Below, piece by piece: positions 2,346-23,401 of a stretch of DNA of 24,136 bases; within the stretch, counting starts at the first letter, position 1; each line of letters begins with the position of its first letter. Both the position numbers and the translations under genes were made by a program. This DNA is from a virus. The stretch lies in IMG/VR virus record IMGVR_UViG_3300033978_000764, positions 1 through 24,136 of that record; one strand, written 5' to 3'. The notes below the pieces were generated by a model that was not told where the DNA came from, searched no databases, and saw nothing but the letters and a program-made list of their open reading frames with translations.

Positions 2346-5300
2346 TCAGAGCACGACGTTTGGAGTGATGTTGAACCCGTGCTCAGGGCTGATGCCACGG
2401 GCGTAGGACCGCAGCGCCATGTTTAGAGCAAAGGTGCTGTCCGCTTGGTTCAGCGCGGCGTTGGTGATGACAGGGTTGTATCGCCTAGTGGAAGCGCCCA
2501 ATGGGTGAGGCTCGCCATAGAACGGCTCGACTAGGCCGGTTGTATCGGCCAGTGTTGAACCGTTCACGGCCGCCGTGATCCTATTGCCGACTGCATAGGT
2601 AAGGCCCGATGTTCCGGCAAGGGTGTTCCAGTTGGCCTGAGTGGTGCTGCCCAGCGACAGGATTTGATAGGTAACGCCAGCGGCTGCAGAGTTAACGTCA
2701 ATCCCGTACTTGGGCACGATCAGCGTAAATTGGTTGGCGGCTAAGCCCGCTACCTTAAAAATTGTGCGTTCTGGCAGAAATTGAGGTCCCAGAGCAGTCC
2801 TGGTGTCTATACCGAGAAGCACCGTGGCGCCGCGCTCTTGGTCAGAGATGCCCTCGTTGCCCAGCAGTACGCCGCGCACCTTGACGGAGTTATAGCCGTT
2901 AGAGCCAAATCGACCAACAAATCCCTCTGTAATGTTGCCAGTAGCTGACGATGAAAAGGACTGCAGAAAAGCAGTACGAACACTTAAAGAACGCTTGGCA
3001 TGAATGAACTGATCCAGGAACGGGCCAGAGTCGTTGTCAGCAGGCTCGGCACCAGTCGATGTGAGCAGGTGGATGTGATTTGGCAAGTAACGAGTATTGG
3101 TGGAGTTTTGATGCCAGGTCCTGGTGGCAGGATTTGATTGATCCTGCAGGTAGCTGACCCTTGAGCCTATCTGATCAATCACCACAGGCTCAGCAGTGAT
3201 CGGCCCGAGGAATGTGTGATGGAACTGGCGCCAAGTCCAGGGTGCTGCAACTGACGTTGATCCATAGTGCGTATCGCCAGACATCGGCACGTCATTTGTT
3301 ACCCCCATGCCGGCGCTGGAAATGGTCGTATTCCCGCGCAGATAAAGGGCGCTCCACCGCAGCTGGACCAGCCCGTTGGTTGCGATGTACGGCGGACGAG
3401 CGGCACCAAGTGAATCCTTGCGCGAAGGCAGCGGCGAGCCGAACACAATGCCGCGCAGGTCTGCCACGTCGGTGGGGTTGCCCTCTAGCTGGATTGGCGG
3501 GGTGGTGGTCCAACTGTCGTACGCCGGGTTGCGGCCATTGCTGATCCGCAGCTGGTTCAGGAATGTATCAACGTTCGTGGCGGTGTTGGTGGTGAATGCA
3601 CCGCTGGGGAGCGTGACGCTGCCAGTAATGAACTGCCCTGCGGTGATTGCGCCTTCAGCCACCAGCTTGATCAACTCGGACACGCCCAGGAAGTGGAACC
3701 CACCACGAAAGTCCACACCACGACGCCAGCGCATTTGCCGACCGAATGTGCTTACGTGCAGCTGATTGTTGGCGGTCTGGCTGTCGCGTAAAAACAGCGT
3801 AAATGCCCTGAAATTCACCCGAGTGCTGAGGTTGCCGTAACCTGAGCCATCAAACCAGGTTTCAGCGGTGGCAGGGTCGCCGGTTTCGGGGAAGATCAGC
3901 GGCCAGCCGGCCTGCGTCGGATCGCTGGCCCTGAACACCACATTGCATTCCCACACCGAAGCAGGATCGTAGAGCCCTGGCGCAATCCTGATTTCAGCGG
4001 TTTGGTTGCCGCTGCCAATCACTGCATTCGCGTACTCCGCCGCCCGCGCCAGGGTGGGAATGGCGGCAACCGGACTGGTTGGCGGGGTGTCGAACATTTG
4101 ATCCAGGGTTCGATCCGTCGCAGTGCTCTGCACGTAGATCGTGATTGTGCCGGTAGCGGCCGAGACCAGCCGTTGCGCCTGCCGCCAGCGGTTGAGGCCA
4201 GGGAGACTAACTAGCTTATTATTTGCCCGTGATAGTTGTTCATCATTTGCTGCAATGACTGTACTGTTTAGATAATCTGCGATTGGTGCCAGTTGGCCAA
4301 ACCCAAATTTGTTGGTTGTCATGCCCATGGCATCGCCGCCATCGAGCTCGGAAACACCGTTTACGTCGAACTTACCGGTTGCCGTAAGGTTGTCAACTGT
4401 TAGATTATCGAGCCGTGTTGGCGGCGGGGTATCACCTTCTTTGCCAATGTCATCAACACCAATGACCTCGCCGGTGTCGGTGTTGATCAGCCCTTGATTG
4501 GTTACATCAAAGCCATCCTTGTTGGTGCCGCGAATTTCTACCCTGCCGCCTTGTTCTGGTGCAAAGTTTGCATTGAACTCGTTCCTGGCACTCATCGTGC
4601 GGCGCCAACGAGGCAGCGCTCTGGTGTAATTCCAGAAACCCACACCGTTAAGATTCTGCCCCAGCAGCTGGATGAAGCTGGGCTGTCGAAACTCCAGGGC
4701 CCAGTTGGCGCGGCCACTGGCAGCACCACCACTTGGCGGTGTGGGAAAGTCTGTGGCAGATGCGGGATCGAGCTCGCGGCTTGCTTCCGTACGCGGCACC
4801 AGGGCGTTGTGCGCAGCCGTGCTGCTGAAGCCCAGAGCCAGGAGCATGGCCAGTGCGCCGCGATAGTCGGTAGCGCTGCGCAGCTGATCGCGCACGCTGC
4901 CGGAGCTGGTGTAGATGGTGGCCCAGTTGATGCCGCAGGTGGTGGTCAGGTCAGTGCCGCCGTCGGTATCGGTGTCGAAAATCAGCTGCGGCGCTTCCAG
5001 AGAGGTTGGATCCTCGGCGTTGTAGTCCGACGCCTGCTGCACATAGGATTCCTGCCAGAAAGCCTCATCAGGCGTGCTTCCAGCGGAAACATGTGTGACG
5101 GTGGCGGTGAAGTGCTTGCCGGCATGCTTTACCGTTTCCCCCTTGCGATAGAAGCGGCCGGCGGCGTAGACCTCATCGGGACAGGAGCGGCGGATTGTGA
5201 TCTCCGCCGACATCACCACCCCGGCACCTTCCGCTGGAATCTTGGTGGTCGTGGTCACGGCCAGCACCTCAGCACCACCAGGGGCCAGCACGCGATCAAT

Positions 5301-7208
5301 GCCGCCGCCAGTCACCCCAGGCCGGGTCTGAAGAATGCTGTTGCGCACCGGCACCCTGGAGTTGGTGGTGTTCGCCAGCCTCAGCGATACCCGCCGCTGC
5401 GCAGAGCTGCGGTTGTCCCACAACCGCCGGATGTAGACCTTCCGACCGACTGCCAAGGATGCTCCACCCGTTGCCGTGCCAATCGGGAGGTTGGTGCCGG
5501 CTTGCAGCGCCGCACCTGTGATGTCGATCTCGGTAGCTGAGGTGCTGACCCAGGCATTGGCCGCCAGAGTGGCGCGCCAATCGGGGCCCCCTGGGTTCTC
5601 AATCCAGATCAGCGTGCCAGCGGGCAGCGAGTAGCCCTGAGCGGCCAGCACGGCGGGTATAGCCGGATCATCGCTAGGGGCCAGCGGCAGCTGAAGCGTG
5701 ATCAGGCTGCCCGAAATGGCAGCCACGTTGCCGAGGCCAATCTGCCGCACGTTGCCGGTCTGATCGGCCACGCTGCGCGCCACCTTCAGGCGCCTGAGGT
5801 TCCAGTTCTGATCCAGCGGGTCGCTGTTGGGGGCATAGCCCTTGGCCACGGCAACGCAGCCACCGAAGTTGCTGGTGGAGTTGCTGAACTCCAGCTGGGC
5901 GCCGCTATCGGCAAAGTGATGGCGGCCAGCACCGATGGCAAACACGCTCACCATTTGCCCGAAGGCGCCGCTGATCAGGCTGACGTGGCGACTCATCCGC
6001 TGCGGCTTCATCCGCACGTCGTCGGCCTCGCTGTCGATCAGCTCCTGGTAGTTCACCGGCGCACGCCAGGCGCCCTCCCGGTAAATCTGCCAGCAGCTGA
6101 GATCGCGCTGCACGGAGATGCCGGTGAACTGGGCGATCACGATGGATTTCAGGCCCGTAACGCGGGCGCCATCCCAGAACGCTCCGCCCATGCCCCACTC
6201 GGTGCGCAGCGAGCAGTTGTAGACGTAAGGGCTGGCGCCCTTCACTGTGTCGGACGCCTCCGAAGGGTTGGCGCCGAACGGGCCCACAATTTCGTATTCC
6301 GACAGGCGGGGGACGGCCAGGGCGTTGGAGATGTTGCCGCTGTTGCTGGCGCCGCCCATGGCGGTGCGCACCTTGGCGTAGAGCTGATTCAGATCCGCCT
6401 GGCTGGCGGCCTGAAAGCAATCGATGAGGTGGTGGCTGGAGTTGGCGCCCAGCTGGTCACGAAACGTAAGCCCGTAGACGTAGCTGGTGTTGGTGATCTT
6501 GAGGATTGCCGCTCGGTTGCTGTAGTCGACTGCCTCATCCGCCGCGGCCGGCACCCAGGAGGGCCTCACCGTGCATTGCCTGAGGCTGAGCGGGGCGCTG
6601 GCAGTGGCGTAACGGGGCAGAACAATTCCGCCGCTGTTGGGGTTGAAGGCGATCAGGTGGTTTGGTGTGGGGTCAAACCCCTCGGCCGGCCATTCGGTGA
6701 TCGGAATGGCGCTGGGGCTGTTGCCGGGGTCGTTGTAGAAAATATGTGTGCCCGGGGCAAACTCAACCGCTGGGCAGTCAACCTGAGCGTCTTCTGAATT
6801 GAGGGTGAAATAACTCTTGCTGGTGGCCAGGACGATCTCAATCGCCACCCGGTTGATGGTGCGGAACGGTCGCTGCTTGCTGTAGCCACAGGTAAGGCGC
6901 TGGTTTTCGAGGCGCCTGAGCTTGGCCCTGATCTTGGCGGCGTCGCTGGCGCCGGCCGGCTCCTCAAACCAGTTGTAGGAACCACCCACGAAACGGTCCG
7001 TGCCGATGTAGGGGTTGACGTAGATCGTGAACGGGCTGTTGAGCGGATCGGCCGGCTCGGAATTGCCCGGGGCAATATTGGCGTTGCCCACCAGCTGCAG
7101 CAGGGCATCCACCACCGCCGAGAGCTGATCCTTTGCCCGCAGCTGCCCACCAGCACCCACGGCGTTGCGAATGCCGGCAAGGGCGTTGGCGACGCTGATC
7201 CGAGCCAT
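2346..7208 (-). CDS. Large modular tail fibre/tailspike, probable receptor-binding protein
   Basis: This 1620-aa protein is the distal, host-facing part of the tail. Near residue 59 a TIYV..TDR motif is followed by RPFRTI (about 113) and an FAPG turn (about 147). This is the pattern at the start of pectin-lyase-like beta-helices, and a related arrangement recurs at about 1022-1080 (TIYV..TDR, IAPGLYDP). Residues 672-722 (VYAAGRFYRKGETV...FW) resemble a CBM5/12-type carbohydrate-binding module. A linker (about 915-963) with repeated LDNLTVDNLT-type turns separates the halves. Residues 1510-1563 (TYQILSLGSTTQANW and on) match a motif I associate with cyanophage tail proteins. GGGGAG lies 14 bases before the ATG. 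The distal half is visibly less GC-rich than the proximal half. Fibre identity is secure; enzymatic activity is not shown. Confidence 0.85.
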   Translation of the reverse strand: MARISVANALAGIRNAVGAGGQLRAKDQLSAVVDALLQLVGNANIAPGNSEPADPLNSPFTIYVNPYIGTDRFVGGSYNWFEEPAGASDAAKIRAKLRRLENQRLTCGYSKQRPFRTINRVAIEIVLATSKSYFTLNSEDAQVDCPAVEFAPGTHIFYNDPGNSPSAIPITEWPAEGFDPTPNHLIAFNPNSGGIVLPRYATASAPLSLRQCTVRPSWVPAAADEAVDYSNRAAILKITNTSYVYGLTFRDQLGANSSHHLIDCFQAASQADLNQLYAKVRTAMGGASNSGNISNALAVPRLSEYEIVGPFGANPSEASDTVKGASPYVYNCSLRTEWGMGGAFWDGARVTGLKSIVIAQFTGISVQRDLSCWQIYREGAWRAPVNYQELIDSEADDVRMKPQRMSRHVSLISGAFGQMVSVFAIGAGRHHFADSGAQLEFSNSTSNFGGCVAVAKGYAPNSDPLDQNWNLRRLKVARSVADQTGNVRQIGLGNVAAISGSLITLQLPLAPSDDPAIPAVLAAQGYSLPAGTLIWIENPGGPDWRATLAANAWVSTSATEIDITGAALQAGTNLPIGTATGGASLAVGRKVYIRRLWDNRSSAQRRVSLRLANTTNSRVPVRNSILQTRPGVTGGGIDRVLAPGGAEVLAVTTTTKIPAEGAGVVMSAEITIRRSCPDEVYAAGRFYRKGETVKHAGKHFTATVTHVSAGSTPDEAFWQESYVQQASDYNAEDPTSLEAPQLIFDTDTDGGTDLTTTCGINWATIYTSSGSVRDQLRSATDYRGALAMLLALGFSSTAAHNALVPRTEASRELDPASATDFPTPPSGGAASGRANWALEFRQPSFIQLLGQNLNGVGFWNYTRALPRWRRTMSARNEFNANFAPEQGGRVEIRGTNKDGFDVTNQGLINTDTGEVIGVDDIGKEGDTPPPTRLDNLTVDNLTATGKFDVNGVSELDGGDAMGMTTNKFGFGQLAPIADYLNSTVIAANDEQLSRANNKLVSLPGLNRWRQAQRLVSAATGTITIYVQSTATDRTLDQMFDTPPTSPVAAIPTLARAAEYANAVIGSGNQTAEIRIAPGLYDPASVWECNVVFRASDPTQAGWPLIFPETGDPATAETWFDGSGYGNLSTRVNFRAFTLFLRDSQTANNQLHVSTFGRQMRWRRGVDFRGGFHFLGVSELIKLVAEGAITAGQFITGSVTLPSGAFTTNTATNVDTFLNQLRISNGRNPAYDSWTTTPPIQLEGNPTDVADLRGIVFGSPLPSRKDSLGAARPPYIATNGLVQLRWSALYLRGNTTISSAGMGVTNDVPMSGDTHYGSTSVAAPWTWRQFHHTFLGPITAEPVVIDQIGSRVSYLQDQSNPATRTWHQNSTNTRYLPNHIHLLTSTGAEPADNDSGPFLDQFIHAKRSLSVRTAFLQSFSSSATGNITEGFVGRFGSNGYNSVKVRGVLLGNEGISDQERGATVLLGIDTRTALGPQFLPERTIFKVAGLAANQFTLIVPKYGIDVNSAAAGVTYQILSLGSTTQANWNTLAGTSGLTYAVGNRITAAVNGSTLADTTGLVEPFYGEPHPLGASTRRYNPVITNAALNQADSTFALNMALRSYARGISPEHGFNITPNVVL

Positions 7209-8317: not shown

Positions 8318-8716
8318 TCAGAAGCGACCGCTCATGTCGCCGTTCACCCGCATGCTGAGCGAGCAGGCGATCAATTCGCGCACCCGCACGGGTGCACCGA
8401 GAGAGGCCGTCAGCACCTCCATCGTGAAATCTCCACGGGTGGAGCCTCGGCGGGTGACGATGCGCAGGGTGTCAAGGGCTTCGTTGTCGTCCCAGATGCT
8501 GTTGGCCATTGCGCATGCGGCGGCGTTGTCGGGGTCGTAGAGGAAGGTGCAGCTCAGCTGGGTGGAGCGCACCCCCTTGGCCACAGTGCCCGCGGCCTGT
8601 CCGATGCCTGTCGTTTCAAGCTCATCGCGGGAAACCGTGGGCGTTACATCTGTGATCTTCCCCACCAGCGAGCCGTTCCAGTACACATCACTCTGGGTCG
8701 TGTTCCTGACGCCCAT
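8318..8716 (-). CDS. Small tail-tube-like protein
   Basis: This 132-aa protein shows the features of short tail-tube proteins: an early strand with VYWNGSLVG, a DELETTGIG loop, a GVRSTQLSCTFLYDPDN segment, and a closing strand that ends NGDMSGRF. Tail-tube subunits form stacked hexameric rings around the tape measure. Here the gene lies downstream of the tail hub, not upstream of the chaperones, and a longer tube protein is already encoded at 22391-23401. It may therefore be a specialised ring at the tail tip or an accessory ring protein. The ATG at 8716 is the first possible start after an in-frame TGA; its ribosome binding site is weak. Confidence 0.65.
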   Translation of the reverse strand: MGVRNTTQSDVYWNGSLVGKITDVTPTVSRDELETTGIGQAAGTVAKGVRSTQLSCTFLYDPDNAAACAMANSIWDDNEALDTLRIVTRRGSTRGDFTMEVLTASLGAPVRVRELIACSLSMRVNGDMSGRF

Positions 8717-13572: not shown

Positions 13573-14036
13573 CAGGCGATGAAGATGGAGCCGGTGTCTG
13601 GCAGCTGGCCCACCAGCTCAGTGGTGAGGCGGCGGCGGGGCGCATCACCACGGATGGCATCCAGCGGTGATGTGAGGGTGACCTTGATGTACTCGCGCCG
13701 CTCGATCGGGCCCAGCCGCCAGAGATGGCGCGAGAGGAGGCGGACATCGGTGCCGGCGGCCACGTCGCACAGCACCACATCGGCGCGGAGCTTCCAGCGG
13801 TTGGCGCGGGCCTCGGCCAGCACATTCAGCGCCAGCTGGTTGCGGTTCATCGCAAGCCGGCCCTCGGAGCGATCACCACCGCGGGCACCGGCCGAATCGG
13901 AAATTCGGAAGCCCATCGAGGTATGGGGCCGGCCGTCGTAGGTGCGCGTCTGCCCGGTGAAGAGGTTCTGCCAGGCGTAGCCGGGCACTGGCGCGCCATT
14001 GGCCTGGAAGGAGATGTAGGCGCAGATGGCGATCAT
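13572..14036 (-). CDS. Minor tail protein (gpL-like position)
   Basis: This 154-aa protein begins MIAICAYISF. Its start overlaps the tape measure stop by one base (TGATG) and its stop overlaps the next start in the same way. It lies between the tape measure and the NlpC/hub genes, the place of lambda gpM/gpL-type minor tail proteins. A segment with NLFTGQTRTYDGRPH and SMGFRISDSAG (about residues 24-50) and a regular strand pattern after residue 80 (LRADVVLCDV, IKVTLTSPLD) fit a beta-sandwich tip protein. I do not recognise a named family. It is probably a structural component of the distal tail. Confidence 0.75.
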   Translation of the reverse strand: MIAICAYISFQANGAPVPGYAWQNLFTGQTRTYDGRPHTSMGFRISDSAGARGGDRSEGRLAMNRNQLALNVLAEARANRWKLRADVVLCDVAAGTDVRLLSRHLWRLGPIERREYIKVTLTSPLDAIRGDAPRRRLTTELVGQLPDTGSIFIA

Positions 14037-17000
14037 CAGCGCATCCCCACGCTGCTTTGAATGGAGGGGTTGTTGCGGAAGTCGTTGTAGACCGCTTCGC
14101 GGCTGGCTGCAGCGGCTGCGGCTGCGGCCTGGTGCACCTGCTCCACCGTGGCGTATTCCACGCCGTTGATCACCTGCGTTTCCACCTTGAGCCGCAGCGA
14201 CCTGGAGGGGCCCATGGCGCTGGGGGGAGCGCCACCAGGCCCAGACCCTGCCATGGCGCCGCCGCTAGGGGATGACTTGAGGAAGGGAATCGGCGGCAAG
14301 CCAGACCGGCCGCCAGCACTCTGGGCGGGCCCGGCGGCCATGAAGGGGACTGGCGGCGCGCCAGACCGGCCGCCAGCACTCTGGGCGGGCCCGGCGGCCA
14401 TGAAGGGGATGCCGAGCGAATCGCCACCGTCCGCCACCTGAGCACCGCCACCTGGGGTGCGCTGGAACGGCACACCCAGCGCCTTGGTGAGGGCCCGGTT
14501 GCTGTAGACCTTTCCGCCGGCCTTGTTGAACCGCACGATCTCCGCATTCTTCTCGCCCACCAGGTAGTCGAGCCCGTACTGGATCTCCCCCCCACCTGCG
14601 AAACCGGGGGTGAAGGAAAGGTTGGGGCTGCCCAGGTTGAGCATGGGACCAGCGGCAGACCAGTCAGGCCCCCCAAAAGCTGCTGCGCTGTTGAACGCGA
14701 CATCCAGGTTGCCGAGGCCAGCGAAGCCGCTGATCAGGCTGGGGATTTTGGTGGCCAAGCTCCCCCACACGTTTGCGCTGTCGCCCACGGCAGCAGCTCC
14801 GGATGCACCGGCCGCAGACAGCAACGCCGCACCAGCGTTCATCAGCTGCAATGCAGCGCCCTGGTGGGCGCTTGCAGCGTTCGTGTGCGATGCCGCGGCC
14901 ATCTCCAGTGCTCTGCCCGGGATGTCGATCCCGGTGAACGTTTTCACGATCCCGCCCTGCAGCTGGGATAGCAGCGGGTTGAGGAGAGAGTCGAGTGTGG
15001 CCTTCATCAGCGACTGCCCCGCTTGCGCCAGCGCGCTGCTCACCGCCTGCCTCACATCACCACCAGTGAGCAGTGCCTGCACGGCGCCGGAAATAGAGCC
15101 GCTGATGCTGCCGCTCACCGCGTCGCCGGCGGAGATGGCCAGGCGGCCCTGGGGAGTCTGCATCACCTCGGCAGTGAGTTGGGCCTTTGTTCGCTCGTAG
15201 GCCAGCTGTGCTCGCTCTGCCAGCTGCTGCTCGGTGAGGTTTTCATTCTCCAGGCTGTTGGTGTTTTGGAGGTCTTTCAGGGCCTGGGTGTTGTCTTCTA
15301 TGGCCCTGACCAGCCGGGTTTCGGCAGAATCCACGTCGTTCAGGCTCTGCTGCAGCGCTTCCGCCTGGTTGGCGGTGCTGGGCGCCACAACACCCCCAAC
15401 GGCGGCAACTGTGGTGGCAACTGAGTCAGCAGGGAGGGCAGCCGCGGCCCGGGCCTGGCCCATACCGGTGAAGGGCTGCACGCCCAGCGGGATGGCTGCT
15501 CCAGGGGCCACGCCAGGGGGTGGGGCCACCGTGGAAAACGCATCTATGCGCTGGCTATGAGGCAACTGCCCTGAAGGGCGAAGGATCGAGGCTGAAGGGG
15601 CACCGACACTGGAACCAGCGGCCTGGCCCTGCACCCTCCCCGTAACGAGAAGGTCAGCGCTGCGGCGGGCGGCTGCCGTTTCTGCATTGCGCTGCAACGC
15701 CCCATTCGTTCCAGGGCTATTGATGTCAACACTGTTATGTGCGCCAAACGTGCGGCCTGAACCATCAAAACGGCCCAGCACCTGCCCTCCAACTACGTGC
15801 TGTCCGACCTTTACGATTGCGGCCATGTGGCTATAGGTAGCCTCTAGTTTGTTGCCCAGGTCGTCAATGAACTCAATTACTGTGTAGTTTCCATTGTTAC
15901 CTGCTCTGCTTATTTCGGTCACCACGCCATTGTGGTAGCTGTGCATTTCATTGTTTGGTCCTACTGGCATGTCCGCGCCGTTCTGGCCGGACGCATCTAG
16001 CCGGCCACTGATGGAGCCCGGAAGCCGTGCAACACCTCCCAGCGATGGCACGCTGCTGGCCCCTGCCAGTCGTGGGGCGATTTCATCCTTCATCTGGGTC
16101 AGCCTGAGCCGACCCAGCTCTGCCGTCAGCTGCGCGCGCTGCAGGGCGATGTCCACCTTCTGCCGCTCCATCTGCAGCTTCTGGATCCGCAGCTCGCTCT
16201 CCTCTTTCTTGTGCTGCACCTCCTGCTGTTTCTGCGCCAGCTGGTGCTCGCGGGCCATCTGCCCCTCCTTGGCGTCGAACAGCCGCTGCTGCACTTCCGC
16301 CGCTGATTCCATCCCGCTCACCCCGGCCGCGGCCGCAGCGATCTGGGCCTCGATCACCGACGCGGTGCCGCCGCCACTGCGGGCGCGGTCTTGCAGCTCC
16401 TGCACTTCCGCGAGCCGCTCGGCGGCCTGCACCGCCGCCTTCTCGCGGGTCATGGCCAGATCGGCCTGGGCCTTCTCCAGCCGGCCCTGGCGCTCGAGGA
16501 GGGTGTTCTGACGGTTGATCGCGTCGCTCTGATCTTCCAGCTCTCGCTTTTTGGCGTTCTCCTTGTTGACGATCTCGTCGAGCGTGTTCGAGATGTTTTG
16601 CTCCGCACCGCTGATCTGGGCCAGGAGCAACTGCTGCTCACGGGTGTACTGGGCTTGCTGGCCCTGGATGTCGAGCTGCTGCTCCTGGAGGCCCAGTCGC
16701 TGGGCATCCAGAGCGATGATGGTGCCCAGCTGGCCTTCGGCCTCAAAAGCCAGCTGCACCTGCCGCCGGCTGCCCTCCACCTTGGCGTTGATGCGGGTCT
16801 GCTCGGCAGCATTGATGTTGAGCAGCTCTTGGTTCTTGCCCCACTCGGCGCTGTAGAGGGGCATATTTTTCTGCGTGCGCAGCAAAGCGTCTCGTTCCTT
16901 CTGCGCACGCACCTGTTCGGCCTGAGCTTCAGCCAGCTGGATCTTGAGCTGCTCCTGCTGGATCTTGATCTGCTTTTCCTGGATAAGCATCTGCCGCTGC

Positions 17001-19030
17001 TGCAGCTCCCGTTCGGTCTGGAGAATCCCCCGCCGTTCGGCGATAGCCTCTCGTTCCTGCCTGAGCTTCAGGTCAGCCAGGCGAGCCTCTGCAGCGGCTT
17101 TGGCCTCAGGGCTTGCAGCCACCTGCGCGCCCAGCTCATAACCACGGGCCTCTAGAGCGCGGCGGGCTCCGGCAACAGAGCTCATGGCTTCCGCCACCTC
17201 CCGCTGCTTGTTCATCAGGGTGAGGCCCTGCTCCAGCGCCTTGATTTCGTTCTGGTAGGCCTTCTGCTTGATCTCTGACCATTCCTTGGAGATGTTCAAA
17301 GCCCGGATTGCTCCAGAGCCAAGCCTCTGTTCTCTGGCCTCGATCCGCTCTAGAACATCAGCTGGCAGCTTGAGGCTGCGCAGCGTTACCGGCTCGCTGA
17401 GGTTGGTTTGCCGGTTGAAGTTCTCCCTGAAGCTGAGCTGGGCTTCCTGAATTTGCTTTTCTGATGCACCGCTCGCCATCATTTGGGCGCGCATCGTAAA
17501 CAAACGGAAGTTCAGAACGCTTTGCGCCCACTTCTTGTTCCAGTTGTCGATTGCTTTGCCGGCGCCTTCCGCGCCTGCTATGAGGTTGTCAAAGAATGTG
17601 TTAACGCCATCGGCATCTGCATCGGCACTGGCATTAAACAGTGCCTTGATTGGGGTGATTGTTCCACCGATTAGATTCGCGAGATTTTCAAATTGTTTGG
17701 CAATCAGTTCAACAAACCTTGCAATCGTTACAAGAACAGGCTGCAGCACAAAACCCAGCACTGCGGTTGCCACGCCTACTACATCCATGATCACCCGACC
17801 CACCGATGAAGCGATAGCACCTATAGATGTGAGAACTGAAATAACGGGGCCAAACACCTTGATAATTGGCCCAACAGCCTCGGCGATGCTCTTGAAGAAC
17901 CCACTAAAGCTGCTCTGCAGATTCTTGAAGGTGACCCCGATCGTTTGCAGCATCCTTGCCGTGTCGCGCTCCAGCGGCTGGCCAGCCTCAGATTGAATTG
18001 CCTGATTGGTTTCTTCAAAGTTGCTCAATACGTTTTCCATGCTTAGCGACAGCACCTTTTGGCCCTCGTAAAGTTTCTCCAGCCTCTGCATTAGGAAGTC
18101 GCTGAACGTCCCCTTGGCCTGTTGCTGGCGCACGTCCTCGTTGGAGATGCCTAGCTTTTGGGCCAGCATCGCGTCAGGGCCAATATTTCCCGTCATCAGG
18201 GCATTCACCTCCTGCCGCAGTTGGAAGGCAGGAATGCCAAGCGTGTTCATCCCGGCGGCTATCCTGGTGGCCAACTTGGCGGAATTTTCCAGCGTGCCCT
18301 TTTCGCCTAGAGCGCCGATGTTCTGGAGGATGATGTTGAAGCCGTCGTAGATTTCGCTGGCGGTGGCGCCGCTGATGTTGGCCACCTCTTTCTGGATGCC
18401 CTGGTATTCCTTCAAGATCGCGCCGCGCACGATCTGCATCTGGCGGGCAGTACCCTCCACCAGCTTCCCGTCTGGCCCGAGGATCGCAAAGCTCTGCGCC
18501 GCAAAGATCCCGGCCTCCGCCACCTGCTTGTTGAGCCGGCCGGCCTCGGCCGAAAGTTGCTGCAAAGGGCCCAGCACGGCGTTAACTGCCCCCTGCAGCC
18601 CCCCGAAGATGGCCTGCAAACCCGTGGCCGCCAGGCCGAGCTGGCCCAGGATCGGTATCGCCTTCCCGGCCATCCCAAGCATTCCGGCCAGGCCATTGGT
18701 GGCGCCACCAAAGCCACCGCTGCCGCCAGCTGCTGCCGCCGCCTGGCCGGCGCCGCGCAGCTGCTGCGAAAGCATCGTGAACGCCTCGCCATCGCCCTGC
18801 ACGCCGCGGCGCAAGGCCTCCATGGTCGCGGCCAGCCCTTGATAGCCGCGCTGCGTTTCCGGTGGCGGCGGCGGGATGTTGGGGGCCGGGATTTTGGTGC
18901 CCCGCTTTTCCATGTCGGCGATCACCGCCCGCATGCGCGCCAGGTCGCGCTCCAGCGGCTGCATGTCGCCGCGTAGGGTCAGCGTGGCTGTGCCCAGGCT
19001 GTATTCGCCGCCGCCGCCGCTCTGGGTCAA
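14036..19030 (-). CDS. Tape measure protein
   Basis: This 1664-aa protein sets tail length and occupies the tube lumen. The N-terminus (SLGTATLTLRGDM...LARM) is typical. Hydrophobic segments lie at about 383-445. Long charged coiled coils run from about 584 to 985. A degenerate M23-like domain lies at about 1020-1110, more hydrophobic helices follow, and the end has FAGGGEIQYGLDYLVGE (about 1474-1490), a common tape measure signature. A 20-residue repeat lies at about 1540-1580. The TTG start at 19030 is the first usable start after an in-frame stop, with AGGGA nine bases upstream; Met23 is an alternative. At about 0.15 nm per helical residue the tail could reach around 200 nm or more. It follows the chaperone genes as expected. 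Confidence 0.95.
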   Translation of the reverse strand: MTQSGGGGEYSLGTATLTLRGDMQPLERDLARMRAVIADMEKRGTKIPAPNIPPPPPETQRGYQGLAATMEALRRGVQGDGEAFTMLSQQLRGAGQAAAAAGGSGGFGGATNGLAGMLGMAGKAIPILGQLGLAATGLQAIFGGLQGAVNAVLGPLQQLSAEAGRLNKQVAEAGIFAAQSFAILGPDGKLVEGTARQMQIVRGAILKEYQGIQKEVANISGATASEIYDGFNIILQNIGALGEKGTLENSAKLATRIAAGMNTLGIPAFQLRQEVNALMTGNIGPDAMLAQKLGISNEDVRQQQAKGTFSDFLMQRLEKLYEGQKVLSLSMENVLSNFEETNQAIQSEAGQPLERDTARMLQTIGVTFKNLQSSFSGFFKSIAEAVGPIIKVFGPVISVLTSIGAIASSVGRVIMDVVGVATAVLGFVLQPVLVTIARFVELIAKQFENLANLIGGTITPIKALFNASADADADGVNTFFDNLIAGAEGAGKAIDNWNKKWAQSVLNFRLFTMRAQMMASGASEKQIQEAQLSFRENFNRQTNLSEPVTLRSLKLPADVLERIEAREQRLGSGAIRALNISKEWSEIKQKAYQNEIKALEQGLTLMNKQREVAEAMSSVAGARRALEARGYELGAQVAASPEAKAAAEARLADLKLRQEREAIAERRGILQTERELQQRQMLIQEKQIKIQQEQLKIQLAEAQAEQVRAQKERDALLRTQKNMPLYSAEWGKNQELLNINAAEQTRINAKVEGSRRQVQLAFEAEGQLGTIIALDAQRLGLQEQQLDIQGQQAQYTREQQLLLAQISGAEQNISNTLDEIVNKENAKKRELEDQSDAINRQNTLLERQGRLEKAQADLAMTREKAAVQAAERLAEVQELQDRARSGGGTASVIEAQIAAAAAGVSGMESAAEVQQRLFDAKEGQMAREHQLAQKQQEVQHKKEESELRIQKLQMERQKVDIALQRAQLTAELGRLRLTQMKDEIAPRLAGASSVPSLGGVARLPGSISGRLDASGQNGADMPVGPNNEMHSYHNGVVTEISRAGNNGNYTVIEFIDDLGNKLEATYSHMAAIVKVGQHVVGGQVLGRFDGSGRTFGAHNSVDINSPGTNGALQRNAETAAARRSADLLVTGRVQGQAAGSSVGAPSASILRPSGQLPHSQRIDAFSTVAPPPGVAPGAAIPLGVQPFTGMGQARAAAALPADSVATTVAAVGGVVAPSTANQAEALQQSLNDVDSAETRLVRAIEDNTQALKDLQNTNSLENENLTEQQLAERAQLAYERTKAQLTAEVMQTPQGRLAISAGDAVSGSISGSISGAVQALLTGGDVRQAVSSALAQAGQSLMKATLDSLLNPLLSQLQGGIVKTFTGIDIPGRALEMAAASHTNAASAHQGAALQLMNAGAALLSAAGASGAAAVGDSANVWGSLATKIPSLISGFAGLGNLDVAFNSAAAFGGPDWSAAGPMLNLGSPNLSFTPGFAGGGEIQYGLDYLVGEKNAEIVRFNKAGGKVYSNRALTKALGVPFQRTPGGGAQVADGGDSLGIPFMAAGPAQSAGGRSGAPPVPFMAAGPAQSAGGRSGLPPIPFLKSSPSGGAMAGSGPGGAPPSAMGPSRSLRLKVETQVINGVEYATVEQVHQAAAAAAAASREAVYNDFRNNPSIQSSVGMR
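14301..14409. repeat. Tandem 60-bp repeat near the tape measure C-terminus
   Basis: A 49-bp string at 14301-14349 is repeated without mismatch at 14361-14409, a 60-bp period. A weaker partial copy may extend to 14281. The period is in frame and encodes two copies of a 20-residue unit of the type PFMAAGPAQSAGGRSG. Exactness implies recent duplication or conversion. Confidence 0.9.
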
Positions 19031-19072: not shown

Positions 19073-20109
19073 TCAGTAGCCAGAGCGCTGCAGCTCTTCG
19101 TGGGCCACCACCAGCACCCGTGGCGGCATCTGGTTGTTGCTGAGCAGCCAGCGGATCGTGGCGGCCGTCGCCTGGGTGATGCGAGCGTTCTTGCCCGGGG
19201 CGTCGGAGATCTTGAACGGCAGGAACTGATCCTCGCTGCGGCCCTTGTTGCCCAGGCCCGGGAAGGCAGCAATCTCAACCATCGAGGCCAACCGCGCCAT
19301 GGTGGTGCTCAGCTCGTTGGTCCGTTTGGCCCGTTCCTTCAGGGCCCAGGCGTAGGCCTTGAGCACCGCATCCACCGGCTGGTACGCGAAGCGCTCGGCA
19401 TGCCAGCGGGGGTCCTGCGTCAGCCCGCTGGTGAGGATCAGCTGGATCTCATCCCAGTCGGTAGGGGCAGTCTTGAGGTATGCCTCTATGCGGGCGCGGT
19501 GCTCGTCGCGGCTGAGGTTTTCTTCTGGCCTCGGGGCTTCGGCGCCGTCTTCGGCGCCGGCGGCTTTCCCCCCGCCGTCATCGCCGCCTTCTCATCGATC
19601 AGGAACTGCTGCAGCTCATTGATCAGGTCAGCTGGCAGCTGACTGGTGTCGTTCTCGCTCCAGTCGCCGGGCTCCAGCTTCACCCAGTCCTGGCTGTCGG
19701 GGTCGAGGTAGTCGCCGCGGCCGATCAGCAGAGTGGTGACAAGGGCTTTCTTCTGATCGTCCATGGTGGCCTGGGACGAGAGGAAGGTGATCAGCCTCTG
19801 CGGATCACTGTTGAGCAACCCGAAGGCCTGCAGGGTGCCCTGCAGCGAATCCGGATCGTTGGGGTTGGCCACCCTTGATAGATCCTGGATCAGCTTGTCC
19901 ACCTCCTCGATGGACATGCCGGTGTCCTTGGCGATGCCATCGGCCAGGCGGTAGAAGCTGCCGAGAGAAACGCACCGCTCCCGGTCGTGCTGCTCCATCA
20001 GTTCTGCTTCGCCCTGCAGCACCTTGCCGTAGACGGCGAGGCGGAACACGCCGCCGATCACCTTGTGGCCGGTGCGGAACGACGCCAGAAGGCGACTGGC
20101 TACGGTCAT
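19073..20109 (-). CDS. Tail assembly chaperone, frameshift fusion (gpGT-like)
   Basis: This product is read as join(20109..19564, 19564..19073). A -1 shift at GGGAAAG after codon 182 leads into 163 further codons that end at TGA 19073, for 345 aa in total. The frame after the shift has no stop and reads like real protein (EENLSRDEHRARIEAYL, TDWDEIQLILTSGLTQDP). Its downstream part has only an internal GTG (19375) as a possible independent start. Lambda gpGT and its relatives are made this way; the T part binds the tail tube protein while G coats the tape measure. It lies directly upstream of the tape measure gene, the conserved place for this system. The fusion is strongly supported by sequence but not shown experimentally. 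Confidence 0.88.
19486..20109 (-). CDS. Tail assembly chaperone, unshifted product (gpG-like)
   Basis: This 207-aa protein is the zero-frame product of the chaperone gene. It is largely helical and acidic (SIEEVDKLIQDLSRVANPND near residues 66-85). The last 25 residues after the slippery site are Pro/Lys/Ala-rich and low in complexity, which suggests they are a short tail. In lambda-type systems the unshifted protein is the abundant one and coats the tape measure before tube polymerisation. The ATG overlaps the stop of the 82-aa gene (ATGA, 20109-20106), so translation is probably coupled. The assignment rests on position before the tape measure and on the frameshift signal rather than on residue identity. 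Confidence 0.85.
   Translation of the reverse strand: MTVASRLLASFRTGHKVIGGVFRLAVYGKVLQGEAELMEQHDRERCVSLGSFYRLADGIAKDTGMSIEEVDKLIQDLSRVANPNDPDSLQGTLQAFGLLNSDPQRLITFLSSQATMDDQKKALVTTLLIGRGDYLDPDSQDWVKLEPGDWSENDTSQLPADLINELQQFLIDEKAAMTAGGKPPAPKTAPKPRGQKKTSAATSTAPA
19541..19570 (-). other. Programmed -1 ribosomal frameshift signal
   Basis: The heptamer GGGAAAG lies at 19570-19564 with zero-frame codons GGA AAG, which is the correct X XXY YYZ phase and the lambda G/T heptamer. After a 5-base spacer (CCGCC, 19563-19559) comes a perfect 7-bp stem, GGCGCCG (19558-19552), loop AAGA, CGGCGCC (19547-19541). One more C-G pair can extend it. The -1 frame is open for 163 codons. All three parts of a classic signal are present. 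Confidence 0.9.
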
Positions 20110-20354
20110 GTGAGAGGCCGGATGGCCGCACGGATCTGAAAGCCAACGTAGCGCTGGCCTTGGTTCAGGACATCCTCCGGCAGGGTCAGCCAGAACTCAG
20201 CGCCGCCCTGGGGCGGGGTGACAAGCACCTCTGCATCGGTGGCGCCGGCCTCCACCACCAGCATGCCCACCATCAGCTCCGGGGCGTTGTCGGGTGCCCT
20301 GCAGTCGATCGCCACCACGTTCTGCATGGGGGTGAGCAGCAGGCGATGGAACAT
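20106..20354 (-). CDS. 82-aa hypothetical protein upstream of the tail chaperones
   Basis: This protein begins MFHRLLLTPMQN and is beta-rich (ELMVGMLVVEAG, AEVLVTP, AEFWLTLPEDVL, RYVGFQIRAAI). Its stop overlaps the chaperone start (ATGA), which argues that it is translated. Neither ATG 20354 nor the internal ATG at 20327 has a good ribosome binding site, so the exact start is uncertain. I recognise no family. Its place between the tube gene and the chaperones suggests a small tail or ring protein, or a tail-tube accessory. Confidence 0.65.
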   Translation of the reverse strand: MFHRLLLTPMQNVVAIDCRAPDNAPELMVGMLVVEAGATDAEVLVTPPQGGAEFWLTLPEDVLNQGQRYVGFQIRAAIRPLT

Positions 20355-20417: not shown

Positions 20418-21413
20418 TCACACTCGCATGAACAGCCAGCTGGCGCAGCCCGGTGGATAGACGCTGCATTGCTTGCCGGCGGAGAGCTTGCCGCGGCCGA
20501 TGAGGCGCCAGCCGTCGCGTTTGGCGCCGACTGAACGGGCGGCGGCCCACTTGTTGATGGTGTGGGCCTCCAGGCCGAGCAGGTGGGCCAGCTCGGGGCC
20601 GGTGATCAGATCGCCAGGCCGGTAGCCGTCGGGCTGCTGCGCAGACTGCGGAGGCATGGGCGGCCCCGGGGGCGCCTGGTGCTGGCGAGGAGGACGCGGA
20701 CCAGGGGCCGGCGCCGCCGGCGCGGGTGCGGGGGGCCGGGGCGGAGCGGCCACGGCTGCCGCCACAGCCTGGCTCCTACGACTCGGCCGCAGGGTCATGG
20801 TGGGGTGCTGGTACACGAATTCCGTCCAGTCGTTGTGGCAGGCCAACCAGAACAGTCGCAGGCTCAGGCAGTTGTGCAGCTCCGTCAGCTGCTTCCGCTG
20901 CCGCCAGAGCTGATCAGCCACAAAGTCATGCGGCTGCGCAACGGCAGGCACTCCTACCGGTTCGCCAGCTGGTCGGACCCTGACATGCAGCTCGGTGCCA
21001 ATCCGTTCGATGGCCACCATCGGCAGTGTGGGCGCCTCGGTGCGATCAGCGGCGATCCTGGGGGTGAGGCTCTCCAGGAACCAGCCGTCCATCCACACGG
21101 CGAAGGCGGGGGAAATCCAGCGGGCAAGGTCGACGGCGAGCTGGGGGTGAACCCAGGTGCCCTGCAGATGGGGAAGGCCACCCTGGATGGTCTGGATCAA
21201 ACCATCGGGGCCCGTTGTGGGGATCTGCACAACGGCTGCCAGAGCAGCGATGTAGGCCTGTGTGCGGTCTAATCGGATGTAGTCGGGCCAGCGCTTGCCG
21301 TTGGCCTTGCACATTGCCGTGGCGTTGACATAGCCGTCGGCCGGCCGGCGCTGAATCTCCACACCGTTCCAGGTGCGCGACTCCATCCCCTTGGGGGTGA
21401 GGGTGCTGTTCAT
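20418..21413 (-). CDS. KilA-N domain protein with C-terminal HTH-like domain
   Basis: This 331-aa protein runs from ATG 21413, which has GGGAG six bases upstream; a GTG at 21461 without a ribosome binding site would add 16 residues. Residues 10-125 form a KilA-N domain: DGYVNATAMCKANGKRW, then WVHPQLAVDLARWISPAF. KilA-N is a DNA-binding fold found in phages and large DNA viruses, often in regulators and antirepressors. A Pro/Ala-rich linker (about 215-270) leads to a C-terminal segment (about 275-331) with LITGPELAHLLGLEAHTINKWAAARS, a helix-turn-helix-like pattern. It sits between tail tube and tail chaperone genes, next to a divergent plus-strand gene. It probably acts as a regulator or antirepressor; the target is unknown. 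Confidence 0.85.
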   Translation of the reverse strand: MNSTLTPKGMESRTWNGVEIQRRPADGYVNATAMCKANGKRWPDYIRLDRTQAYIAALAAVVQIPTTGPDGLIQTIQGGLPHLQGTWVHPQLAVDLARWISPAFAVWMDGWFLESLTPRIAADRTEAPTLPMVAIERIGTELHVRVRPAGEPVGVPAVAQPHDFVADQLWRQRKQLTELHNCLSLRLFWLACHNDWTEFVYQHPTMTLRPSRRSQAVAAAVAAPPRPPAPAPAAPAPGPRPPRQHQAPPGPPMPPQSAQQPDGYRPGDLITGPELAHLLGLEAHTINKWAAARSVGAKRDGWRLIGRGKLSAGKQCSVYPPGCASWLFMRV

Positions 21414-21657
21414 CAATGGCTCCCGCTCGAAGCGGGCGTATGAGTTGCCCGGTGCTGCCACCAGGTTTCGCCAGAGTACAGCAGATCACTTTGTCAAGGG
21501 GTGGCGGGTGGGGCCTCCAGTACCGAGCCCGAACGGCGACTCACGGCACCGCTCCCGGCGCCCAGCCTTGCGGGGAGGGCCGACCCCACCCACCAGTGCA
21601 AGAGTACGGGAGGCGGGGCAACGCCAGCCATCCCGCGATCACCTTGCTTCGGATCCG
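21414..21657. promoter_or_regulatory. Divergent intergenic region between the KilA-N gene and the plus-strand gene
   Basis: These 244 bases separate two divergent genes and must hold their start signals if both are expressed independently. A short hairpin CCCGCT-CGA-AGCGGG (21422-21436) lies just upstream of the KilA-N start and overlaps its ribosome binding site. A minus-strand TTGACA (21497-21492) is present but lacks a good -10 at normal spacing. I find no convincing plus-strand promoter. Regulatory role is inferred from layout. Confidence 0.35.
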
Positions 21658-22390: not shown

Positions 22391-23401
22391 TCAGGCGGTG
22401 CGGAAGGTGGTGGAGAAGCCTGCCAGCGGCCGGCGGATGCCGGCGGCATCGGCCACCAGGGAGGCATTGACGGCCTGGGTGATCGCCCCGTCGCGCACCA
22501 CCAGACGGTAGATGGTGGCGGCCGCCAGGTCGGCGGAGGGGTTGATCGTCACCACACCACCAGCCAGGGTCACCACCGCCGGCACGCGCACGCCGGAGCT
22601 GGCCACCTCGAGGCGGAAGCCGCTGCCATCGGCCGCGCCCAGCGCCAGCTGGGTGAGCGGAGCGGTGCCATCGCTGGTGTAGGTCACGGTCAGGTTGTTG
22701 CCTACCACCACCGCCGTGCCGTTGTCGGCCGGCACCACCGCATAGCGACGGCTGCCGCTGGAGGGGGCCGTGCTGAGAATCACGCTCTGAACCGCACCGG
22801 TGGCCAGCGGCGCGCTGCCGGCGTTGAAACGGCCGAACATCGCCCGGCCGCGGCTCATGCCATCGAAGGTGACGTTGATCAGGTCTTCGGCGGCCTGGGG
22901 CTCCTTGTAGTTGCGCAGCGCAGCGTTGAAACAGGCGTAGTCGTAGATGTAGTCGCCGGTGTTGCCGCCAGCGCGGCCCAGCTCCTTGAACATCTCCACG
23001 AACACTTCCGAGTCGGTGTCGTAGCGGGCCTGCTCAACAATGGCGAACTCCTCGGAGTAGTCGCCGCGGAACTCAGGGCAGCCACCAGCGGCGCCCTGCA
23101 CGATCAGCTTGGAGAAGAAGGTGTCGAACGAGGCGCTCACCTTGCTGCCGGTGGTCACCGAATCGCTCCAGCCTTCGTCACCGATCAGGCGAAACTCCCG
23201 ATCGTTGTTGTCGACATTGAACGACACCTGTTTGACGGTCTGCAGCTCCCGGGCCCAGTCGCCAGGGTCGAGGGTGGGGCGGGTGATGAAGCCGGACTCA
23301 TCGCGCGTGGCGAAATAGCGGCAGGGGGCGCGCAGGGGGGTCATCAGCAGCACACTGCGGTGCGCCTTGACAAAGCTCTGCCCGATCGCGGTATCAGTCA
23401 T
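22391..23401 (-). CDS. Major tail tube protein with C-terminal Ig-like domain
   Basis: This 336-aa protein has an N-terminal tube-like domain (about residues 1-205). Its segments include VKQVSFNVDNNDREFRLIG and VSASFDTFF, followed by a closing EDLINVTFDGMSRG. The C-terminal part (about 215-336) matches the SbsA-type Ig-like pattern: VVTINPSADLAAATIYRLVV, then a D-AG turn and a final FSTTF strand. Such Ig-like domains often decorate the outside of phage tails and may bind host or surface sugars. The ATG at 23401 follows AAGGA at suitable distance. It sits downstream of the tail-terminator-like gene and is followed by a strong terminator, which suits a highly expressed structural gene. Confidence 0.82.
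   Translation of the reverse strand: MTDTAIGQSFVKAHRSVLLMTPLRAPCRYFATRDESGFITRPTLDPGDWARELQTVKQVSFNVDNNDREFRLIGDEGWSDSVTTGSKVSASFDTFFSKLIVQGAAGGCPEFRGDYSEEFAIVEQARYDTDSEVFVEMFKELGRAGGNTGDYIYDYACFNAALRNYKEPQAAEDLINVTFDGMSRGRAMFGRFNAGSAPLATGAVQSVILSTAPSSGSRRYAVVPADNGTAVVVGNNLTVTYTSDGTAPLTQLALGAADGSGFRLEVASSGVRVPAVVTLAGGVVTINPSADLAAATIYRLVVRDGAITQAVNASLVADAAGIRRPLAGFSTTFRTA

What the first reader, a model, noticed from the sequence alone, without database searches (positions are those of the whole stretch)
19541..19570. Lambda-type programmed -1 frameshift in the tail chaperone gene
GGGAAAG in the right phase, a 5-base spacer and a perfect 7-bp GC stem-loop precede a -1 frame that stays open for 163 codons. 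The same heptamer is used in lambda G/T. Ordinary annotation would leave the second part as a truncated GTG ORF at 19375 or miss it. The mechanism is known in siphophages; the exact lambda heptamer in what looks like a cyanobacterial phage deserves recording.
Basis: partly seen in the sequence, partly recalled or inferred. Interest (0 to 1): 0.72.

Follow-up and report, generated by a model that had tools for sequence, protein, structure and literature searches.

The report
Conserved cyanophage tail-chaperone ribosomal frameshift
This virus very probably makes two versions of a tail-building helper protein from one gene by having a few ribosomes slip back one base, a known phage trick that here runs through a large, mostly unannotated group of viruses related to phages of cyanobacteria.

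Summary
Heptamer and open frame are unremarkable alone at 64% GC; conservation decides. T-frame codons before any ATG/GTG/TTG evolve as protein: dN/dS 0.10 over 1340 codons in 48 disjoint pairs. Of 156 loci found by homology, 6 are truncated; all 150 others keep the extension in the -1 frame with an in-phase heptamer. The heptamer turns over: of 108 distinct extensions A_AAA_AAA 62, G_GGA_AAC 20, G_GGA_AAG 18, others 8. The stem is not conserved. Cultured cyanophages S-CBS4 (A_AAA_AAA) and P-SS2 (G_GGA_AAG) have the same arrangement, annotated as separate hypothetical genes, so the lambda heptamer in a cyanophage is not unique. Verdict: a -1 frameshifting tail assembly chaperone that works like lambda G/GT without detectable homology to it; a new member of a known kind, in a family without functional Pfam or PHROG annotation in our scans. 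Nothing was tested at the bench.

The parts
19486..20109 (-). 0-frame 'G' ORF, 207 aa: predicted tail assembly chaperone, short form
   Evidence: 47-100% identity to 8 relatives aligned; distant match to S-CBS4 (64.9 bits)
19564..19570 (-). slippery heptamer G_GGA_AAG, correct phase for tandem -1 slippage
   Evidence: GGGAAAG in phase in 20 of 20 closest relatives and 10 of 12 distant ones, GGGAAAC in the other 2
19567..19573 (-). alternative in-phase heptamer G_GGG_GGA, seen in the window and its nearest relatives L012-L022; slippage here would give the same fusion peptide
19540..19559 (-). downstream hairpin CGGCGCCG-AAGA-CGGCGCCG, 8 bp, spacer 4 nt (or 7 bp, spacer 5 nt); not conserved beyond the window clade and L023
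   Evidence: MFE -20.7, z -3.2; pair counts
19073..19564 (-). -1 frame 'T' extension, 163 aa plus stop; with 182 aa of G gives a predicted 345-aa fusion
   Evidence: purifying selection
19076..19591 (-). whole open stretch of the -1 frame (172 codons); it opens only 21 nt upstream of the heptamer
19373..19375 (-). first possible start codon (GTG) in the -1 frame, 63 codons inside the conserved extension
14036..19030 (-). tail length tape measure protein gene, 1664 aa, starting 42 nt after the T stop
   Evidence: PHROG 1272 tape measure, E 1.4e-4 for its first 500 aa; tblastn to tape measure proteins of two cyanobacterial phages
20106..20354 (-). small gene (82 aa) directly upstream of G; its relative gp031 lies directly upstream of G in S-CBS4, so the gene order is shared
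   Evidence: BLASTP 30% over 56 columns, E 3e-6 for the single comparison

Best explanation
[quoted passage not shown] Most ribosomes read the 0 frame and make a 207-aa G protein. A minority slip back one base at G_GGA_AAG (the two tRNAs re-pair on GGG and AAA) and go on in the -1 frame, making a 345-aa G-T fusion. By analogy with lambda, G binds the tape measure protein and T recruits the tail tube subunit, and the ratio of G to G-T matters for tail assembly. Shown here by comparison: the -1 frame is translated, it stays linked to the G gene, and an in-phase slippery heptamer is kept. Inferred: slippage at this base, its efficiency, any help from the hairpin, and the chaperone function.
For: Phase and geometry. 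-1 frame aa identity 68-100% in 20 relatives and 29-40% in 12 more. T-frame codons that lie after the 0-frame stop and before the first ATG/GTG/TTG of either partner: dN/dS 0.10 over 1340 codons, 48 disjoint pairs; the window against L021, L023, L024, L027, L031 has 0, 2, 1, 1, 1 nonsynonymous and 8, 4, 4, 4, 4 synonymous changes in 36, 15, 15, 14, 11 such codons. L042 has no ATG/GTG/TTG anywhere in its 158-codon extension. The heptamer costs rare codons: GGA is 5.5% of Gly codons in the window, and the exact heptamer is expected in 1.4% of X-Gly-Lys contexts. 150 of 150 usable loci, from 156 found by T homology and not by motif, have -1 geometry and an in-phase heptamer. A tape-measure-sized ORF follows T in 121 of 121 loci with at least 3 kb downstream. 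Cultured S-CBS4 and P-SS2 share the arrangement. The P-SS2 G/T genes (064/065) are missing from the published list of ORFs with hits or virion peptides while 061-063 and 066 are listed, as expected for chaperones absent from virions.
Against: No protein or reporter data exist. Window G and T match no Pfam family and only sub-significant PHROGs of unknown function; relatives likewise match no named tail-chaperone family above a cut-off. hhalign to lambda G and T gives probabilities below 1%. The G model (pLDDT 78) has no PDB match at E 0.001 or better; its best viral match is an unnamed protein (E 2.2e-4), and named tail assembly chaperones appear only at E 0.16-0.6. The T model was too poor to use (pLDDT 55). 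The hairpin is not conserved. Homology of P-SS2 T is weak (12.1 bits). Cr-LKS4 has the G/T overlap but no canonical heptamer. No such G/T pair was seen in the stretch read before the tape measure gene in CL131 or PaV-LD, nor in the region read of Nodularia phage 2AV2.
Confidence: 0.92

Rival explanations
1. T is a separate gene, translated from its own start (GTG 19375 or a non-standard start) by reinitiation after G stops.
For: A GTG ORF of 100 aa exists at 19375; the G stop lies only 110 nt upstream; public annotation of P-SS2 and S-CBS4 treats the second part as a separate gene.
Against: Codons before any ATG/GTG/TTG evolve as -1 frame coding sequence (dN/dS 0.10). The first start lies at least 20 codons inside T, or is absent, in 104 of 108 distinct T proteins. 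Separate initiation does not explain 150 of 150 in-phase heptamers.
Confidence: 0.04
2. The frame change is an assembly or sequencing indel, or a decayed gene.
For: A single contig could carry an error in a G6 run.
Against: The same -1 relation occurs in 150 usable loci (148 contigs), including the isolate genome S-CBS4, and in P-SS2; the -1 frame is under selection.
Confidence: 0.01
3. The frame change is made by RNA polymerase slippage on the homopolymer, not by the ribosome.
For: Relatives with A_AAA_AAA carry runs of at least seven A; transcriptional slippage on such runs is known elsewhere (recalled).
Against: The window clade has only G6A3. GGGAAAG, GGGAAAC, GGGAAAA and AAAAAAC share the X_XXY_YYZ form that suits tRNA re-pairing, not one long homopolymer.
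Confidence: 0.03

Closest known systems
Phage lambda G / G-T tail assembly chaperone frameshift
   Same: Identical heptamer G_GGA_AAG in the same phase (NC_001416; also stated in PMC7618472 passages); the order G, overlapping T in -1 frame, tape measure.
   Different: No detectable sequence homology of G or T; lambda G is 140 aa against 207 here; the window has a strong hairpin next to the site (lambda was not folded here).
Synechococcus phage S-CBS4 gp032/gp033 (unannotated G/T)
   Same: Homologous G (64.9 bits) and T (82.3 bits) in -1 relation, directly before the tape measure gene; the small gene before G is also related (gp031).
   Different: Heptamer A_AAA_AAA; annotated as hypothetical genes, G from a later start and T cut short.
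Cyanophage P-SS2 gp064/gp065 (unannotated G/T)
   Same: G_GGA_AAG in phase 2 of gp064 with a 224-aa -1 frame extension; weak homology of G (23.1 bits) and T (12.1 bits).
   Different: The pair does not lie directly before the tape measure gene (077); T is longer and gives a sub-threshold match to Pfam Phage_tail_T (20.5 bits, cut-off 25.9).
Phage N15 gene 14/15
   Same: A -1 slippery site annotated in the record, between G and T, before the tape measure gene.
   Different: Site GGAAAAG, lambda-family proteins.

Membership tests
Programmed -1 ribosomal frameshift sites (X_XXY_YYZ) | in-phase slippery heptamer inside an ORF overlap | tested here: met
   conserved in 150 of 150 usable loci
Programmed -1 ribosomal frameshift sites (X_XXY_YYZ) | -1 frame under coding selection before any start codon of its own | tested here: met
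   dN/dS 0.10 pooled, 48 disjoint pairs, 1340 codons; within the overlap itself T-frame omega is uninformative (0.5-3.3 where both classes changed)
Programmed -1 ribosomal frameshift sites (X_XXY_YYZ) | conserved stimulatory structure (common, not universal) | tested here: not met
   present in the window clade and L023, weak elsewhere; covariation score reached by 26 of 500 and 90 of 500 shuffles
Programmed -1 ribosomal frameshift sites (X_XXY_YYZ) | measured fusion product or slippage rate | not testable with these tools
   needs experiment
Siphophage tail assembly chaperones with G/G-T organisation | two-frame gene directly upstream of the tape measure gene | tested here: met
   121 of 121 loci with at least 3 kb downstream have an ORF of at least 600 aa (or at least 400 aa running off the end) right after T; identified as tape measure in the window and S-CBS4, not checked one by one elsewhere
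Siphophage tail assembly chaperones with G/G-T organisation | protein absent from mature virions | tested here: inconclusive
   P-SS2 064/065 are absent from its published table; nothing is known for the window phage
Lambda gpG/gpT protein families (Phage_tail_T, PF06223) | sequence or profile homology | tested here: not met
   hhalign probability below 1% for G and T against seven-sequence lambda profiles; Pfam none for window G/T; only P-SS2 T gives a sub-threshold PF06223 match
Cyanobacterial phage | closest relatives among cultured phages infect cyanobacteria | tested here: met
   tape measure: 3 of 3 matching records, two phages; G of a relative: S-CBS4, E 7e-13; terminase of a relative: top 11 of 20 rows listed, 536 records matched
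Cyanobacterial phage | photosynthesis genes (supporting, not defining) | tested here: not met
   Photo_RC and NblA in 0 of 13 records, of unknown completeness
Cyanobacterial phage | direct host link (infection, prophage, spacer) | tested here: inconclusive
   T profile search of bacterial and archaeal genomes confirmed no relative; spacers not tested

The most novel reading that the evidence does not exclude
These phages form one old tail-chaperone family in which the -1 frameshift is fixed but the slippery heptamer has been swapped repeatedly (11 changes on the best T tree). The swaps include repeated use of A_AAC-ending sites (G_GGA_AAC and A_AAA_AAC, 24 of 108 distinct T), a second codon called mammalian-like (PMC5009743, passage). 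If so, cyanobacterial decoding, perhaps through tRNA-Asn modification, tolerates A_AAC slippage that E. coli is thought to disfavour (recalled), and the family is a natural experiment in how phages tune slippery sites to host tRNAs.
Probability: 0.35. Interest if true: 0.6.

Novelty: new member of a known kind. Interest (0 to 1): 0.42.

Why it matters
The mechanism is textbook, but in our scans this chaperone family matched no functionally named Pfam or PHROG tail-chaperone family above a cut-off, and its members are annotated as hypothetical proteins even in the reference cyanophages S-CBS4 and P-SS2. Recording it gives a way to find and name tail chaperones in cyanophage-like genomes. It also offers about 100 natural variants of one frameshift site for testing how heptamer identity follows host decoding.

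Tried and rejected
Stem as the conserved signal: rejected. z is -2.4 to -3.3 for the window, L017, L018, L019, L021 and L023, but -0.7 to -1.5 for L024/L026/L027, -0.25 for L031, about 0 for the six of L032-L041 folded, and -1.2 for L042. Over 105 distinct sites mean z is -1.1, with 31 below -2. The window hairpin may also be a by-product of two tandem Ala-Pro-Lys linker repeats built on the self-complementary GGCGCC (read by eye). An S-CBS4-clade hairpin looked promising, but covariation was no clear excess: 26 of 500 shuffles as high, and 8 of 11 rows break two of its pairs.

Selection test: my first test used the window's own first start codon (codon 63). L023, L024, L027 and L031 have a start earlier (codons 39-42), so only part of its 36 codons precedes every start there; its omegas 0.13, 0.10, 0.14 and 0.23 must be read so. 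One search repeats it strictly. Heptamer phase control: with overlapping matches counted there are 112 in phase, 62 and 5 out of phase in 107 sites, but 66 of the 67 out-of-phase ones are one- or two-base shifts of an in-phase one; without overlaps 100, 1 and 6 in 105 sites.

S-CBS4 gp031: at first I took it for a piece of G. It is a separate small gene, related to window 20109-20354.

Structure: the T model was too weak to search; the G model gave no significant PDB match. Homology to lambda G/T: not found.

Prophage search: a T profile in genome contigs (84,980 species) found 167 pattern matches, none confirmed. P-SS2 T in viral contigs: none confirmed. Window G and T, and the 1361-aa tail protein, in the phages collection: no match. 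CL131, PaV-LD and Nodularia 2AV2: no similar pair in the stretches read.

Literature: searches listed no paper whose title or shown abstract reports a tail-chaperone frameshift in cyanophages. I read listings, of which up to 20 rows were shown, and the library lacks most subscription journals. In P-SS2 paper PMC2784084 the held main text has 0 hits for 'frameshift' and 'chaperone'; PMC6157547 and PMC7156551 have 0 for both. PMC11237433 (Mic1, passages) mentions chaperone genes gp18/gp19 and uses 'frameshift' only for host mutations. The original lambda papers were not seen (one looked up and not held).

Full report
What was checked. The finding lies on the minus strand of a 24,136-base viral record. 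Reading that strand, a 207-codon ORF starts at ATG 20109 and ends at 19486. G_GGA_AAG lies at 19570-19564 with the first G in third codon position. After a 4- or 5-base spacer comes a perfect 8- or 7-bp stem with loop AAGA. The -1 frame opens at 19591, just upstream, and runs to 19076; 163 codons follow the slip site. The 1664-aa tape measure ORF starts at 19030.

Chance. The heptamer is expected 2.94 times in the window and occurs twice. Long open frames on the opposite strand are common here, so openness is weak evidence. The hairpin beats 300 of 300 shuffles but is matched by 3.9% of sampled 45-nt stretches of the strand. In-phase X_XXY_YYZ heptamers (Y = A or T) occur 5 times in 6511 codons of 12 other window ORFs. 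Hence the comparative test.

Relatives. The T extension found 20 contigs at 68-100% aa identity. GGGAAAG is in the right phase in 20 of 20. A profile added 12 contigs at 29-40%, with GGGAAAG in 10 and GGGAAAC in 2, all in phase. Selection was measured by Nei-Gojobori counts. The strict test takes T-frame codons after the 0-frame stop of both partners and before the first ATG/GTG/TTG of either: 48 disjoint pairs (50-95% T identity) give 1340 codons, pS 0.605, pN 0.117, dN/dS 0.103. For the window against L021, L023, L024, L027 and L031 these codons number 36, 15, 15, 14 and 11, with 0, 2, 1, 1 and 1 nonsynonymous and 8, 4, 4, 4 and 4 synonymous changes. An earlier looser test agrees. Inside the overlap, T-frame omega is 0.5-3.3 where both classes changed, as expected for a two-frame linker, and is no evidence either way. 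L042 has no ATG/GTG/TTG at all in its extension.

Cultured phages. The tape measure protein matches 3 of 50,697 phage records, from two cyanobacterial phages. G of L042 matches Synechococcus phage S-CBS4 at 30% (E 7e-13). Its other matches are weak: Cylindrospermopsis phages (E 0.2), P-SS2 (E 0.7) and two Salmonella phages (E 4). In S-CBS4 the G frame holds A_AAA_AAA in phase and T lies in the -1 frame. In P-SS2 the G frame (gp064) holds G_GGA_AAG in phase and T lies in the -1 frame. In Cr-LKS4 the pair overlaps in the same relation but lacks a canonical heptamer; G_GGG_GAG is a candidate read by eye. Profiles of the window family score the T domains of S-CBS4, P-SS2 and Cr-LKS4 at 82.3, 12.1 and 33.2 bits, and their G proteins at 64.9, 23.1 and 24.9 bits (best domain), in a search of six sequences without filters; the P-SS2 T score is weak. 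So the lambda heptamer in a cyanophage had a precedent in P-SS2, published in 2009, where our reading of the held text found no mention of frameshift. The P-SS2 table lists 061-063 and 066 onwards but not 064 or 065 (PMC2784084, passages), as expected of assembly chaperones absent from virions (PMC5009743, passages). The small gene before G is also shared with S-CBS4 (gp031, 30% over 56 columns).

Survey. S-CBS4 T brought 80 loci (81 confirmed, best 80 kept, so the true number may be higher) and L042 T brought 44. With the first 32 this makes 156 loci; two contigs occur twice (L042/L133, L043/L134). Six are truncated before the site. In all 150 others (148 contigs) the extension is in the -1 frame of the upstream ORF and at least one heptamer of the set AAAAAAA, GGGAAAG, GGGAAAC, AAAAAAC, AAAAAAG, GGGAAAA lies in phase in the overlap. 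In four of them the upstream ORF is short because the contig begins there. The loci were found by protein homology, not by motif. By 108 distinct T proteins the counts are 62, 18, 20, 4, 2 and 2 in that order; four loci hold two such heptamers and were counted by the later one. With overlapping matches counted, heptamers fall 112 in phase, 62 and 5 out of phase, but 66 of these 67 are one- or two-base shifts of an in-phase one. On a maximum-likelihood tree of the 108 T proteins the heptamer labels need 11 changes; GGGAAAG alone needs 4. The window's clade (10 distinct rows) is uniformly GGGAAAG and sits on a long branch. In 121 of 121 loci with at least 3 kb downstream, an ORF of at least 600 aa (or at least 400 aa running off the end) starts within 700 nt of T, median 33 nt for the former.

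Stem. In the window clade and L023 a 7-bp stem keeps its place, with one double change (C-G to U-A) in L023, but shuffles reach the same covariation in 90 of 500. L024-L027 have a longer bulged stem that does not beat shuffles; L031 and six of L032-L041 have nothing notable. Pooled mean z is -1.1 with 31 of 105 below -2. A stimulator may exist in single lineages; it is not the family's hallmark.

Relation to lambda. Lambda has GGGAAAG in the same phase between G and T (PMC7618472 passages). Profile-profile comparison of 110-111 T sequences, and of up to 98 distinct G sequences, with seven lambda-family ones gave no similarity; the lambda profiles are shallow. P-SS2 T alone touches Pfam Phage_tail_T below its cut-off; its truncated form matches a PHROG of unknown function (34388). 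So it works like lambda G/GT; common descent is unproven.

Host. Evidence points to cyanobacteria: tape measure, G and T, and the terminase of the record holding L030, whose best 11 of 20 listed rows are Nodularia and Cylindrospermopsis phages (some phages listed twice; 536 records matched, mostly cyanophages but also Vibrio, Pseudomonas and others). No Photo_RC or NblA gene was found in 13 records. I rate a cyanobacterial host at about 0.85.

Verdict. A conserved programmed -1 frameshift, by all comparative signs, in a tail assembly chaperone gene. It is ordinary in kind, apparently unnamed as a family, and most interesting for its repeated heptamer swaps.

Noticed in passing
window 15539-17530, minus strand, inside the tape measure gene: The tape measure protein carries a Peptidase_M23 domain (35.3 bits, cut-off 28.7), so it may also cut peptidoglycan during DNA entry.
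   Followed up: no
window 20418-21461, minus strand: A KilA-N domain gene (74 bits) sits inside the tail module, one small gene upstream of the chaperone; Nodularia phage 2AV2 also has an annotated KilA-N gene between terminase and portal genes.
   Followed up: no
L051 (S-CBS4) 6001-6971; L052 (P-SS2) 4935-6163: Public annotations look incomplete: S-CBS4 gp032 appears to start late and gp033 to be a shortened T; P-SS2 gp065 is a T cut short at its first start codon.
   Followed up: partly
L053-L071: The S-CBS4 clade has a hairpin 11 nt after A_AAA_AAA with varied stem sequences (such as GGCGAGGC/GCCTCGCC and GGCAACGC/GCGTTGCC), though other members break it; covariation not clearly above shuffles.
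   Followed up: partly
L050 29771-29807 (Cylindrospermopsis phage Cr-LKS4): Homologous G/T overlap in the -1 relation without any X_XXY_YYZ heptamer; the slip site may be G_GGG_GAG or another mechanism may act.
   Followed up: no
window 8321-8716, minus strand: A protein matching a major tail protein family (PHROG 10528, E 3e-6) lies downstream of the tape measure, while an Ig-like (Big_5) protein at 22391-23401 lies upstream; which one is the tail tube protein is unclear.
   Followed up: no
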